From the NCBI RefSeq assembly GCF_001276715.1, contig NZ_LIUQ01000058.1, forward strand, positions 1 through 41,126: 41,126 nt of DNA, written 5' to 3'. The position numbers and the translations under genes were made by a program. The stretch's first letter is position 1, and each line of letters starts with the position of its first letter. Under the pieces are notes generated by a model, which did no database searches, was not told where the DNA came from, and saw nothing but the letters and a program-made list of their open reading frames with translations. Below are positions 19,756 through 23,403 of this stretch, piece by piece. The stretch comes from Planktothricoides sp. SR001 (lineage in GTDB: Bacteria > Cyanobacteriota > Cyanobacteriia > Cyanobacteriales > Laspinemataceae).

Positions 19756-22209
19756 ATGACTCGTGATTACCTAACAAAAATTCTGATCGTGGCCGCTAAT
19801 CCCAAAAATACCGAAAAACTCCGACTAGATGAGGAAGTCCGGGAAATTCAAACAGGGCTGGAACGCTCGAAAAGTCGCCACCAGTTTCAGATTATCTCGC
19901 GAACCGCTGTGCGTCCCGATGACCTGCGCCGTGCTTTGTTGGATTATGAACCGCAAATTGTCCATTTTTCTGGACATGGGGTGGGGACTCAAGGGTTAGT
20001 CTTGCTCGATGACGCATCAGAAGCTAAGTTAGTCAGTGCCGTGGCATTGGCGAGGTTATTTAAATTATTTGCCAAACAAGTTAAATGTGTGTTGCTGAAT
20101 GCCTGCTATTCCCAAGTGCAAGCCGAGGCAATTTGTCAATATATTGATTATGTGATTGGCATGGATCGAGAAATTGGCGATCGCGCAGCAATTAAATTTG
20201 CCGTAGGGTTTTATGATGCGATCGCTGCCGGTCGTTCCATTGAAGATGCGTATGAATTTGGCTGTAGTGCGATCGCCTTAGAAGGGCTTTCCGAAGCGTT
20301 AGCCCCAGTCCTGAAGAAAAAAGGAGAATCCTCTCACGATGGGTTACACTATCGGGCTGATTTTCTCGCTGAACTGAATCAAAATAGTCAGGATAGTCTG
20401 GAAAAAAACGTTGAAGAAGTTTATAGAAAAATTAATAAACCTATTGACGAAATGATTCCTGTAACCAGAAAATTTCCGCATAAAAATATCATCAATCACC
20501 CTGCCAATAGTCCCGAAAATTATTTTTCACTCAAATTATCAAAGCCCCTATCCTTAGAACAACCAGAAGGTCAGGTGCCTTTAGATTCTTTATTTTATAT
20601 AGATCGTCCGCCCATTGAACAAGACTGTTATGAGACGATTCGTAAACCGGGGGCATTGATCCGCATCAAAGCGCCCCGCCAAATGGGCAAAAGTTCTTTG
20701 ATGTCTCGGATTCTGCACCAAGTAAAACAGGAAGGTTATCAAACTGTCGAGTTAAATTTCCAATCCGCTGATGCTGACTTACTATCTAATTTAGATTTAT
20801 TTTTACAGTGGTTTTGTGTTAGTATTAGCGAAGAATTAAATTTACCCGATCGCCTTGATAATTATTGGAAAGGCCCCCTGGGAAGTAAAAATAAATGTAC
20901 AAAATACTTTCAAAAATATCTATTAACCGAAATTGCTGAACCCCTGGTCTTGGGTTTAGATGAAGTGGATCAGATTTTCCAACATCCCGAAATTGCCACG
21001 GATTTTTTTGGCTTACTCAGGGCTTGGCATGAACGAGGCAAAAATGAGGCACTGTGGAAAAATTTACGGTTAGCGATCGCGCATTCTAAAGAAGTGTATA
21101 TCCCCCTGAATATTAATCAATCTCCGTTTAATGTGGGATTACCGATTTCTTTGCCCGAATTGACCCCCGCACAAGTAACAGACTTAGTGCAGCGTCACCA
21201 ACTGAATTGGTCTGACAGTCAAATTCAGGATTTGATGACAATGGTGGGGGGACATCCTTATCTAGTCAGGGTTGCCCTTTATCAAATTGCCAAAGGACGC
21301 ATGACTTTAGGGGAATTTCTCCAAATTGCCCCCACGGAAGCAGGCCCATACTATGACCATTTACGCCGTCATTTATTAAACTTAGAAAAAGATCCAGATT
21401 TAGTCGCCGCGACTAAACAGGTGATGGGATGCGATCGGGCGATCGAGATTAATGCTGCGGAAGCGTTTAAGTTACGCAGTATGGGCTTAGTCAAATTTCA
21501 AGGCAATGCGGTGATGCCTTTGGGGGAACTATACCGCCAATATTTCAGCGATCGCCTCCAAGGAGGTTTCGGCAGCATTCCTCCAGAGAACATCCCGGAA
21601 AAAACTTGCCCACTGGATCCGGTTTCCGGCACAAATCAAATTTCAGCAATAGCTGAGAATATGCCTCCCACCGCCCCTTTTTCTGTCGGGTCTTTGGTAG
21701 AAAGCAGTACCTTAGCGGCGATCGTTTTTACCGATGTGGTCAACTCCACCGCTCACATGGTCGCCAACCAACAGCAAATGCTCGAATTATTGAAGCGAGA
21801 CTTTGAATTAATTCGAGAAATTTGTCAACGATATGGTGGACGAGTCCTCAAATCAACCGGCGATGGCTGGTTAATTTACTTTGACAGCGCCGTCAAAGCG
21901 GTGGCTTGTTCTCAACAAATTCAAAAAACCTTGAGTAAAAATGCCGCAAGTTTACCCCCTGATTTAGTGTTAGAACATCGGATTGGGGTTCATCTCGGTG
22001 ATGTATTTTTCAGTGGCGATGATGTTTTTGGGGCTGGAGTGAATCTAGCCGCCCGTCTGCAAAGTCAAGCTAACCCTGGGGGAATTTGTATTTCTGATAC
22101 GGTCTATGAAGTGATTAAAAATCATTTATCGATCCATGTCACCTATATCGGGCCACAGCAACTCAAAGGAATTCCTGAACCCGTGCGCTTGTATCAAATT
22201 AATCCTTAG
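19756..22209 (+). CDS. CHAT protease / AAA-like ATPase / class III nucleotide cyclase fusion
   Basis: 817 residues, three domains in one chain. (1) Residues 1-190 form a CHAT (caspase-like) domain starting KILIVAANPKNTEKLRLDEE; His74 in VHFSGHG and Cys117 in VLLNACYS are the catalytic pair. (2) About 270-600 form an AAA-like (AAA_35-type) domain with YIDRPPIEQDCYE, Walker A APRQMGKSS (306-314), Walker B LVLGLDEVD (397-405) and MVGGHPYLVRVALYQ. (3) 651-817 form a class III cyclase with metal Asp660 (IVFTDVVNST) and Asp703 (STGDGW), Lys699, and Asn763/Arg767 in GVNLAARL. No membrane helix, so it should be cytosolic. All catalytic residues are present. Protein substrate, nucleotide product and trigger are unknown. 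Transcribed alone. Confidence 0.9.
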   Translation: MTRDYLTKILIVAANPKNTEKLRLDEEVREIQTGLERSKSRHQFQIISRTAVRPDDLRRALLDYEPQIVHFSGHGVGTQGLVLLDDASEAKLVSAVALARLFKLFAKQVKCVLLNACYSQVQAEAICQYIDYVIGMDREIGDRAAIKFAVGFYDAIAAGRSIEDAYEFGCSAIALEGLSEALAPVLKKKGESSHDGLHYRADFLAELNQNSQDSLEKNVEEVYRKINKPIDEMIPVTRKFPHKNIINHPANSPENYFSLKLSKPLSLEQPEGQVPLDSLFYIDRPPIEQDCYETIRKPGALIRIKAPRQMGKSSLMSRILHQVKQEGYQTVELNFQSADADLLSNLDLFLQWFCVSISEELNLPDRLDNYWKGPLGSKNKCTKYFQKYLLTEIAEPLVLGLDEVDQIFQHPEIATDFFGLLRAWHERGKNEALWKNLRLAIAHSKEVYIPLNINQSPFNVGLPISLPELTPAQVTDLVQRHQLNWSDSQIQDLMTMVGGHPYLVRVALYQIAKGRMTLGEFLQIAPTEAGPYYDHLRRHLLNLEKDPDLVAATKQVMGCDRAIEINAAEAFKLRSMGLVKFQGNAVMPLGELYRQYFSDRLQGGFGSIPPENIPEKTCPLDPVSGTNQISAIAENMPPTAPFSVGSLVESSTLAAIVFTDVVNSTAHMVANQQQMLELLKRDFELIREICQRYGGRVLKSTGDGWLIYFDSAVKAVACSQQIQKTLSKNAASLPPDLVLEHRIGVHLGDVFFSGDDVFGAGVNLAARLQSQANPGGICISDTVYEVIKNHLSIHVTYIGPQQLKGIPEPVRLYQINP

Positions 22210-22503
22210 AGATGCTTTGACAACGGCCAGGAAAGTCAATTTTTAAAGATATGATGAAGATTCGGGAGAATTTATTGACAAATCAGCAATGCTAACTGTT
22301 ATATTAGTGAAACAAAAACCTGAGTAAAAGAAAACATAAAATTTCATCTACCAAAAATCATTGATAAAATATCAGATTTTTGGCAAGTTTTTATAGGAAT
22401 ACAAATTCACAAATACACAATTTTTTATATAAACTGGGTGCTAACGTTAACTTCGAGATTGTTCTAGAAATTGATGAGGTCATATCTAAAATGGGAGGTT
22501 TTA

Positions 22504-23403
22504 ATGAATAAGAGCGAACTTGCTCCAGTGCAAATGCTGAAAGAGCCATCCGCTTGGTTAGGTGCGATCGCTATAGGATTAATCATCGTTAACCTAGCAA
22601 TTCTCTGGAAAATTGACGATCAAGCCCACTTAGGCATGAGTGTTTTATTTTGGCTACCTGTGGGTTCACTGATTTGGGAAAAACGCCAAGAGTTAAATCT
22701 CAAAAGCGATCCAATTGGCAGTTTTATTGGTGCTGTACTGATTGGTTTCTTTTTATTCACAATCATGTCAATGCCCGCCAAACTTTCCGGTCAATTAAGT
22801 ACCTACGATCCAATGTTGCGTCTGATGCCATTTTTATCTGGGCTTGGGGTAGCTTTAATCGCATCAGGCATCAAAGGCTTAAAACAGTACAAATCAGAGC
22901 TAATAATTCTCTTTTTTCTGGGAATTCCTGGGGTCATTATTACAGATTTACTCAAAATTGATATCTCGCCATTTACGGCCAAAATCTCAGCTTTTATGCT
23001 GTGGTACACTGGCCATGAACTGGTCTTAGAAGATGTTTTTATTTATTTACCGGGGGGGTCGATCAAAGTCTATGGTGGCTGTTCAGGGATGGAATCCATG
23101 ACTTATCTGTTGGGACTATCGGCGGTTTGTTTAATCATGTTTCCTTTAGAACGGTTTAATCAAAAGCTTCATAAATTTTTGATCGCCAGCTTTGCCTTAA
23201 CCACTGGATTTATCGTCAATGCGGTTCGGGTTGCCCTGATGGCAATTTTGGCGGCTTCCTCAAACCCAGACGCTTTTGATTACTGGCATGAAGGAGATGG
23301 TTCCCTGATCTTTGGTATGATTGCTGTCGGGATTTTCGGGCTGTTCTATATGTTCCTCCTGAAACAGGATGAACTTAAGCCACAGGATCCTGTAGAGTCA
23401 TAA
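22504..23403 (+). CDS. crtA: Cyanoexosortase A
   Basis: 299 residues from ATG 22504, which follows the strong site GGGAGGTTTTA; an upstream TTG at 22471 is in frame but unlikely. Eight or so membrane helices are seen. The exosortase catalytic residues are Cys193 (VYGGCSGMES), Arg242 (VNAVRVALMA) and His262 (DYWHEGDGS), all in the expected order. The enzyme cleaves and transfers proteins that carry a PEP-CTERM-like sorting tail, linked in cyanobacteria to surface polysaccharide and filament behaviour. It is followed at once by an exosortase-associated fragment and an HpsJ-like gene. No PEP-CTERM substrate gene was seen in this window. Confidence 0.92.
   Translation: MNKSELAPVQMLKEPSAWLGAIAIGLIIVNLAILWKIDDQAHLGMSVLFWLPVGSLIWEKRQELNLKSDPIGSFIGAVLIGFFLFTIMSMPAKLSGQLSTYDPMLRLMPFLSGLGVALIASGIKGLKQYKSELIILFFLGIPGVIITDLLKIDISPFTAKISAFMLWYTGHELVLEDVFIYLPGGSIKVYGGCSGMESMTYLLGLSAVCLIMFPLERFNQKLHKFLIASFALTTGFIVNAVRVALMAILAASSNPDAFDYWHEGDGSLIFGMIAVGIFGLFYMFLLKQDELKPQDPVES

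What the first reader, a model, noticed from the sequence alone, without database searches (positions are those of the whole stretch)
19756..22209. CHAT protease, AAA-like ATPase and nucleotide cyclase fused in one protein
One 817-residue chain holds an intact caspase-like CHAT dyad (His74, Cys117), an AAA_35-like ATPase with Walker A and B, and a class III cyclase with both metal Asp residues. CHAT proteases and NTPase switches are both known in bacterial defence and programmed cell death systems, and cyclic nucleotides act as messengers in several defence systems. Having sensor/switch, protease and messenger maker in one polypeptide suggests a self-contained signalling or suicide module. The order protease-switch-cyclase could mean that proteolysis releases or controls the cyclase, or that the cyclase reports protease activation. 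This is inference; no classic defence genes flank it.
Basis: partly seen in the sequence, partly recalled or inferred. Interest (0 to 1): 0.78.

Follow-up and report, generated by a model that had tools for sequence, protein, structure and literature searches.

The report
Protease–switch–cyclase signalling protein in cyanobacteria
A cyanobacterial gene encodes one protein that joins a caspase-like protease, an immune-receptor-like ATP switch and an enzyme that probably makes cyclic AMP; it appears to be the output half of a two-protein receptor family that swaps sensors and outputs.

Summary
ORF 19756-22209 (+), 817 aa, has CHAT (11-165), AAA_35 (270-598) and class III cyclase (654-816) domains, all above Pfam cut-offs. 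The second metal Asp is D703. The same order occurs in at least 11 of 388 order-level genomes (loci read). CHAT His74/Cys117 and cyclase D660, K699, D703, N763, R767 are invariant in 11 of 11.

The "self-contained suicide module" reading is only partly supported. The protein belongs to a modular cyanobacterial family. "A" genes fuse AAA_35 to CHAT, TIR, kinase, class III cyclase or GGDEF; many sit upstream of a "B" gene with a divergent AAA_35 plus a sensor-like tail such as WD40, GUN4 or CHASE2. In 13 chosen genomes 54 of 76 A genes have B within 3.2 kb downstream. The window copy has no adjacent B. The AAA_35 model resembles STAND-like ATPases including Avs3/Avs4, at low TM-score. No defence operon was recognised.

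Best reading: sensor-driven, NTP-dependent co-assembly switches on a paired cyclase and a proximity-activated protease. Mechanism and role are inferred.

The parts
19756..22209 (+). Whole gene: CHAT-AAA_35-class III cyclase, 817 aa (A-type, output subunit)
   Evidence: full-length relatives
19786..20250 (+). CHAT (caspase-like) protease domain, residues 11-165; His74 codon 19975-19977, Cys117 codon 20104-20106
   Evidence: Pfam PF12770 E 1.4e-10; PADLOC chat model E 3.9e-22; PDB relative 8tl0 E 1.1e-13; dyad invariant 11 of 11
20251..20562 (+). Poorly conserved, gappy linker between CHAT and AAA_35
   Evidence: alignment
20563..21549 (+). AAA_35 STAND-like NTPase switch, residues 270-598; Walker A GKSS codons 20686-20697; Walker B-like LGLDEVD; GGHP motif
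   Evidence: Pfam PF14516 E 4.5e-147; motif conservation in 94 ORFs, fragments included; fold search
21550..21714 (+). Variable linker between AAA_35 and cyclase
   Evidence: alignment
21715..22203 (+). Class III nucleotide cyclase domain, residues 654-816; D660 codon 21733-21735, K699 21850-21852, D703 21862-21864, N763 22042-22044, R767 22054-22056; Ala760 in place of the canonical Asp
   Evidence: Pfam PF00211 E 1.1e-17; PDB relatives 3mr7, Ma1120, lipJ 1ybt; residues invariant 11 of 11
22471..23403 (+). Context only: cyanoexosortase A (CrtA), next gene downstream, where 7 of 11 genomes with the architecture have the B gene
   Evidence: NCBIfam TIGR03763 above cut-off; Pfam Exosortase_EpsH

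Best explanation
The protein is the output subunit of a split, STAND/NLR-like two-protein signalling family of cyanobacteria. A partner B protein (divergent AAA_35 plus a sensor-like tail: WD40, GUN4, CHASE2 and others) detects a cue. The AAA_35 switches of A and B then bind nucleotide and co-assemble. Assembly brings cyclase domains together as the dimer that class III cyclases need, making cyclic nucleotide (probably cAMP), and brings CHAT domains together so that proximity activates proteolysis. One event thus gives a diffusible messenger and a proteolytic output. Shown here: the domains, invariant catalytic residues, the A-B gene pairing in relatives, and the swapping of outputs and sensor tails. 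Inferred: physical A-B assembly, the order of events, cAMP as product, the protease substrate, and that the window protein, which has no adjacent B, uses a B encoded elsewhere.
For: Domains. Invariant CHAT and cyclase residues in 11 of 11, and in a wider set of AAA_35-fused cyclases: D660, K699, D703 in 20 of 20; N763, R767 in 19 of 20 with 1 gap. B gene next downstream in 7 of 11 three-domain genomes. 54 of 76 A genes have B within 3.2 kb downstream in 13 genomes (7 A and 6 B fragments dropped first), plus 5 head-to-head pairs that I read from the positions. In the fetched loci 62 of 80 distinct A ORFs with enough flank have B (9 more were cut short). Interchangeable outputs (tally of 108 distinct A ORFs, a hit-biased sample). 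Interchangeable tails on B: WD40, GUN4-Macro and CHAT, CHASE2. AAA_35 model resembles STAND-like ATPases including Avs3/Avs4. Conserved Lys699 is the adenylyl-cyclase-type residue (PMC4215837 passages).
Against: The window gene and 3 of the other 10 three-domain genes (G407, G523, G449) have no adjacent B, and 18 of 80 A ORFs with enough flank have none. No activity, binding or structure is shown. The AAA_35 model is of moderate quality (pLDDT 74, pTM 0.48) with TM-scores of 0.38 or less, and ORC/RuvB-type AAA+ proteins match too. A profile search found no solved AAA_35 relative. The full-length model was too poor to use. The second base-specifying residue is not canonical, so ATP specificity is a prediction. 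The best candidate partner in trans is not kept by the same-genus genome G523.
Confidence: 0.55

Rival explanations
1. Anti-phage abortive-infection receptor (Avs/NLR-like): a phage cue triggers CHAT proteolysis and a cyclic nucleotide alarm, leading to dormancy or death of the infected cell.
For: Output set CHAT, TIR, kinase, cyclase resembles conflict-system effectors described in PMC7159879 and PMC8195603 (passages). Fold matches to Avs3/Avs4. Patchy distribution of the three-domain order. PADLOC models do match single proteins nearby: PycC to the window's CHASE2-cyclase (E 5e-26) and HamB to its helicase (E 1.7e-30); PD-T4-6 to a kinase near the G606 copy (E 3.6e-36) and PycTIR to a Crp-like protein near the G396 copy (E 1.2e-15).
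Against: Those PADLOC matches are to widespread domains (cyclase, helicase, kinase, cyclic-nucleotide-binding), my judgement, and no defence operon was recognised among 10 window neighbours or 10 proteins of three relatives' loci. No relative found in viral contigs by a scan that reaches close relatives only. Family sensor tails include GUN4 and CHASE2.
Confidence: 0.22
2. Internal protease-to-cyclase relay: CHAT cuts the variable linker before residue 654 and so releases or activates the cyclase.
For: The AAA_35-cyclase linker is variable and gappy in length and could hold a cleavage site; CHAT dyad intact.
Against: Cyclase tails occur on AAA_35 proteins with no recognised protease (AAA-CYC 4, TIR-AAA-CYC 1 of 108 A ORFs; the N-terminal stretch of the AAA-CYC ones is unassigned), and CHAT-AAA occurs without cyclase (22 of 108, some cut by locus ends), so neither domain needs the other. 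I saw no conserved site in the linker of the 11 sequences.
Confidence: 0.1
3. Ordinary environmental cAMP signalling protein (light, redox, tetrapyrrole status); CHAT serves as a binding or assembly domain more than as a protease.
For: B partners can carry GUN4 and CHASE2; paralogues in the same genome carry GGDEF; neighbours look non-defence (several labels are my reading).
Against: CHAT His/Cys dyad is invariant in 11 of 11 and present in nearly all AAA_35-fused CHATs (H 35 of 38, C 37 of 38, the rest gaps), which argues for catalysis.
Confidence: 0.13

Closest known systems
Antiviral STAND proteins Avs3/Avs4 and NLRs (STAND NTPases)
   Same: NTPase switch with effector domain(s) and a repeat or sensor arm; Foldseek matches of the AAA_35 model to 8dgc, 8dgf and plant NLRs
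   Different: Effector and sensor tail sit on two proteins, each with its own AAA_35; a cyclase tail follows the switch; no defence context recognised
VMAP/iSTAND/iSTAND2 vWA-MoxR ternary conflict systems and the EACC1-caspase two-gene system (Kaur et al. 2020, 2021)
   Same: Logic of constant NTPase or adaptor parts with interchangeable caspase, TIR, cyclase, GGDEF and kinase domains (PMC7159879, PMC8195603 passages)
   Different: Different core: no vWA or MoxR among the 10 window neighbours scanned; an AAA_35 pair instead. No mention of this pair in the passages seen
TRADD-N proteins of Gemmata with nucleotide cyclase and caspase in one chain (PMC8195603)
   Same: Precedent for a caspase-like protease and a cyclase in one polypeptide
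   Different: Joined through TRADD-N/FGS, not through an NTPase switch; planctomycete
Pycsar (PycC cyclase systems)
   Same: Class III-type cyclase; weak PycC profile matches, best E 7.8e-8
   Different: No cognate effector gene recognised next to it; cyclase fused to protease and switch

Membership tests
CHAT protease | Caspase-like fold profile with His-Cys dyad | tested here: met
   PF12770 over cut-off; H74 and C117 invariant 11 of 11. Activity not tested
Class III nucleotide cyclase | Two metal Asp, base-binding Lys, Asn-Arg transition-state pair | tested here: met
   D660, D703, K699, N763, R767 invariant 11 of 11
Adenylyl (not guanylyl) cyclase | Lys plus Asp (or sometimes Thr) at the two base-specifying sites | tested here: inconclusive
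   Lys699 present; second site Ala760 (Ala or Thr in relatives); residue rules from PMC4215837 passages
STAND NTPase / NLR | P-loop, D[DE] Walker B, N-terminal R-x-x-x-E-like motif, GxP-like motif (motif list recalled) | tested here: met
   R284, E288, GKS/T, DE402-403, GGHP498-501 conserved in most of 94 ORFs
STAND NTPase / NLR | STAND-type fold | tested here: inconclusive
   Foldseek E 4.6e-8 to 2qen, 2.9e-5 to Avs3, but TM-scores 0.38 or less; ORC proteins match as well
STAND NTPase / NLR | Sensor or repeat arm on the same chain | tested here: not met
   No repeat family in the 817 aa protein; WD40 arm is on the B gene in scanned relatives
STAND NTPase / NLR | Nucleotide-dependent oligomerisation | not testable with these tools
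   needs purified protein
Pycsar | PycC cyclase with an adjacent cyclic-nucleotide-responsive effector gene | tested here: not met
   Only weak PycC matches; no such effector among the 10 window neighbours scanned
vWA-MoxR ternary (VMAP/iSTAND) system | vWA and MoxR genes in the operon | tested here: not met
   None among the 10 neighbours scanned with Pfam
A-B AAA_35 pair (defined here) | B gene (divergent AAA_35 plus sensor-like tail) adjacent | tested here: not met
   Absent beside the window gene; present in 7 of 11 genomes with the same architecture

The most novel reading that the evidence does not exclude
Cyanobacteria carry a large family of split NLR-like receptors, undescribed in the papers searched, in which the output (A) and sensor (B) halves are separate proteins that mate through paired AAA_35 switches, with interchangeable outputs at both ends of A. 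The window's CHAT-AAA_35-cyclase A works in trans with the lone intact B gene of its genome, AAA_35-GUN4-Macro, which lies beside hemN, bchE and psbA genes, and so couples tetrapyrrole or low-oxygen state to cAMP and regulated proteolysis.
Probability: 0.2. Interest if true: 0.8.

Novelty: new variant of a known kind. Interest (0 to 1): 0.56.

Why it matters
It links in one chain three parts of immunity and cell-death signalling (caspase-like protease, STAND-like switch, messenger synthase), and shows that this chain belongs to a modular, mostly two-gene receptor-like family in cyanobacteria. If A and B co-assemble, the family offers a bacterial version of paired NLRs with swappable outputs. 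Paired operons such as those of G442 or G277 make it directly testable, and it bears on what CHAT proteases and cAMP do in stress or death of filamentous cyanobacteria.

Tried and rejected
PDB profile search with AAA_35: nothing. Viral contigs: no relative. Plasmids: 614 records match, none with one place over 80% of the query, so the full architecture was not seen there. Promoter scan around the gene: no more sites than in shuffles; terminator-like sites 8 against 4.5 (sd 2.2) expected; not used.

Literature: searches (open-licence PMC papers only) turned up no description of this architecture or of the A-B pair in what I saw. One search was badly posed: it asked for the stem 'cyanobacteri' as a whole word, which cannot match. 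Two papers listed (PMC6722718, PMC7522525) and the HetF paper listed (PMC8406250) were seen only as listings. The one AAA_35 passage read concerns sigma factors (PMC11119718).

Trans-partner idea: the lone intact B of the window genome (C102, AAA_35-GUN4-Macro) groups with the paired B of G548 and a lone B of G449, but support is modest (92/85 and 92/58). The same-species genome G407 keeps it (93%), the same-genus genome G523 has the A protein but no GUN4-Macro B. Lone B genes also occur in genomes whose three-domain A is paired. Kept only as a lead.

Single origin of CHAT-AAA_35-cyclase: neither shown nor rejected (support 30).

Full report
WHAT IS THERE. The ORF 19756-22209 (+) encodes 817 aa. 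Pfam finds CHAT at 11-165 (E 1.4e-10), AAA_35 at 270-598 (E 4.5e-147) and Guanylate_cyc at 654-816 (E 1.1e-17), all above the curated cut-offs. PADLOC's chat model matches residues 7-176 at E 3.9e-22; its PycC models match the cyclase part only weakly, best E 7.8e-8. By sequence the closest solved structures are class III cyclases (3mr7, Ma1120, lipJ 1ybt) and one CHAT protein (8tl0). Motif positions: GHG His74, NAC Cys117, Walker A GKSS 311-314, LGLDEVD, FTD Asp660, Lys699, GDG Asp703, Asn763, Arg767.

RELATIVES. A scan of genome contigs gave one full-length relative, L011 (86% best segment, MAG Oscillatoriales S07.Bin090). In 388 genomes of the class, 252 match the whole protein at E <= 1e-60, in the listed rows mostly through AAA_35 alone; 139 of 388 match the CHAT part at 1e-25 and 118 of 388 the cyclase part at 1e-15. 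In 388 genomes of the order and the loci from it I found the full three-domain order in 11: the window genome, G407 (same species, 98%), G523 (same genus, 87%), G442, G396, G428, G277, G606, G616, G548 and G449. This is a lower bound: at most two candidates per genome were scored, and not every hit was fetched. Alignment of the 11 shows H74, C117, D660, K699, D703, N763 and R767 identical in all. Position 760, Asp in most adenylyl cyclases, is Ala in 5 and Thr in 6. The linkers on both sides of AAA_35 vary. In G449 the cyclase carries a short internal repeat.

A WIDER FAMILY. Reading the ORFs of the fetched loci and scanning examples with Pfam shows a modular family. An A gene carries AAA_35 with outputs before and/or after it. 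The tally of 108 distinct A ORFs (biased to close hits, duplicates of the core removed, some ORFs cut by locus ends) is: kinase-AAA 40, CHAT-AAA 22, AAA with no seed-detected partner 15 (at least one of these, L045, has a C-terminal TIR by Pfam), CHAT-AAA-cyclase 10, CHAT-TIR-AAA 7, cyclase-TIR-AAA 4, AAA-cyclase 4, TIR-AAA 2, AAA-GGDEF 2, TIR-AAA-cyclase 1, and one double AAA_35 with cyclase. A B gene carries a more distant AAA_35 (E 7e-33 in L034), in the examples scanned followed by a sensor-like tail: WD40 repeats in L016, L171, L174 and L149 and L153; GUN4-Macro in L158 and full CHAT in L174; CHASE2 in L155.

PAIRING. In 13 genomes, chosen as the 11 above plus two of the window's family, I placed the A and B matches on their contigs. 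After dropping 7 of 83 A and 6 of 85 B matches as short fragments, 54 of 76 A genes have a B within 3.2 kb downstream on the same strand (in some genomes, such as the window's, two tandem A genes share one B), and 58 of 79 B genes are in such units. With about 6 B genes per 7 Mb, chance would give roughly 0.1-0.2% per A gene (my arithmetic). Five further A-B pairs stand head to head, 3.4-5.1 kb apart between the AAA segments (my reading of the positions). In the fetched loci, 62 of 80 distinct A ORFs with enough flank have B and 18 have none, among them all three N-terminal-cyclase ORFs then in hand; 9 were cut short. Of the 11 three-domain A genes 7 have B next downstream (G442, G396, G428, G277, G606, G616, G548) and 4 do not (window, G407, G523, G449). 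G548 and G449 both have a Ycf3-like gene upstream; in G548 B follows A at once, whereas in G449 a 404-aa ORF and then transposase-like ORFs follow (Ycf3 of G548 identified, the other labels are my reading). So loss or separation of the B gene seems to happen.

THE SWITCH. An AlphaFold2 model of the AAA_35 part (21 sequences; pLDDT 74, pTM 0.48) matches in Foldseek 2qen (E 4.6e-8), ORC2 1w5t, 2fna, Avs3 8dgc (2.9e-5), the NRC1 NB-ARC domain 8bv0 (8.8e-5), Avs4 8dgf (3.0e-4), and further down RPP1 and Roq1. TM-scores are 0.38 or less and ORC/RuvB-type AAA+ proteins match too, so 'STAND-like' is a reasonable but not settled call. Conserved sequence features are R284/E288, Walker A, Walker B-like DE and GGHP.

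EVOLUTION. In the AAA_35 tree of 82 A rows the 11 three-domain rows form one side of a branch with support 30 (not shown, not rejected). Forcing them together with the five AAA-cyclase rows is rejected (lnL loss 137, p-AU 2e-48). Limits: a quick tree with long branches, and I named the group after seeing the tree. The cyclase tail was therefore added to AAA_35 more than once, or lost repeatedly; the cyclase also appears at the N-terminus (CYC-TIR-AAA).

CONTEXT. Ten window neighbours were scanned: CHASE2-cyclase 10441-12435, DUF928, TPR, YbjQ, a short IS1 transposase ORF, DUF3172, cyanoexosortase A, HpsJ-like A, DSHCT helicase, and one unknown. PADLOC matches among them are PycC to the CHASE2-cyclase (E 5e-26), HamB and other helicase models to the helicase (E 1.7e-30), and PrimPol to the TPR protein (1.4e-7). 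Ten proteins from three relatives' loci gave PycTIR to a Crp-like regulator (1.2e-15), PD-T4-6 to a kinase (3.6e-36) and a HEAT/ARM model to the B-WD40 protein. I judge these to be shared domains, not defence operons.

HOW IT PROBABLY WORKS. Class III cyclases act as dimers (recalled) and CHAT/caspase proteases are commonly activated by proximity (recalled). A nucleotide-driven assembly through AAA_35 could therefore switch both on at once. The pairing with B suggests that the cue is read by B. The steps of assembly, product identity, protease target and physiological cue are all inference. Lys699 favours ATP as substrate (residue rules in PMC4215837, passages read), and Ala/Thr760 leaves doubt.

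COMPARISON WITH WHAT IS KNOWN. Passages of Kaur et al. 2020 (PMC7159879) and 2021 (PMC8195603) describe conflict systems with the same effector vocabulary, and one Gemmata protein with cyclase and caspase on TRADD-N. Passages of three other papers on cyanobacterial or multicellular-bacterial effectors (PMC10907252, PMC7517822, PMC8283722) mention CHAT, TIR, WD40 or orthocaspase combinations but, in what I saw, not this one. In the passages read and in the searches listed under Tried and rejected I saw no description of CHAT-AAA_35-cyclase or of paired AAA_35 genes; most subscription literature was not searchable. Several of the best plasmid records name such proteins 'AAA-like domain-containing protein'. 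I rate it a new variant of a known kind (effector plus NTPase switch plus sensor), with an unusual split layout.

Noticed in passing
L158:7999-10491 (G000 contig C102): Lone B-type gene AAA_35-GUN4-Macro, downstream of hemN, bchE and psbA genes; present in G407 (93%), not found in G523. Possible tetrapyrrole or low-oxygen sensor.
   Followed up: partly
L155:4948-11937 (G000 contig C6): Two tandem AAA_35-GGDEF genes followed by a B gene with a CHASE2 domain: a diguanylate-cyclase version of the same layout in the window's own genome.
   Followed up: partly
window 10441-12435: A second class III cyclase, with a CHASE2 domain, 7 kb upstream.
   Followed up: no
L172:366-1055: A Crp-like cyclic-nucleotide regulator (matches below the NCBIfam cut-offs) lies about 5 kb upstream of the three-domain A gene in G396, with the same start sequence in L171 (G442); a possible cAMP reader, or coincidence.
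   Followed up: no
L175 (G449): A 404-aa ORF and then transposase-like ORFs (my reading) lie downstream of A, where G548 has B, and a short stretch inside the cyclase is duplicated: this copy may be decaying.
   Followed up: no
L174:9224-12052 (G548): A third gene, divergent AAA_35 fused to a full-length CHAT domain, follows the A-B pair.
   Followed up: no
L189-L195: Kinase-AAA_35 proteins of 901-955 aa with about 275-305 residues between kinase and AAA_35 that my seeds do not assign.
   Followed up: no
G000, whole genome: 46 CHAT matches in one 7.07 Mb cyanobacterial genome, some of them fragments.
   Followed up: no
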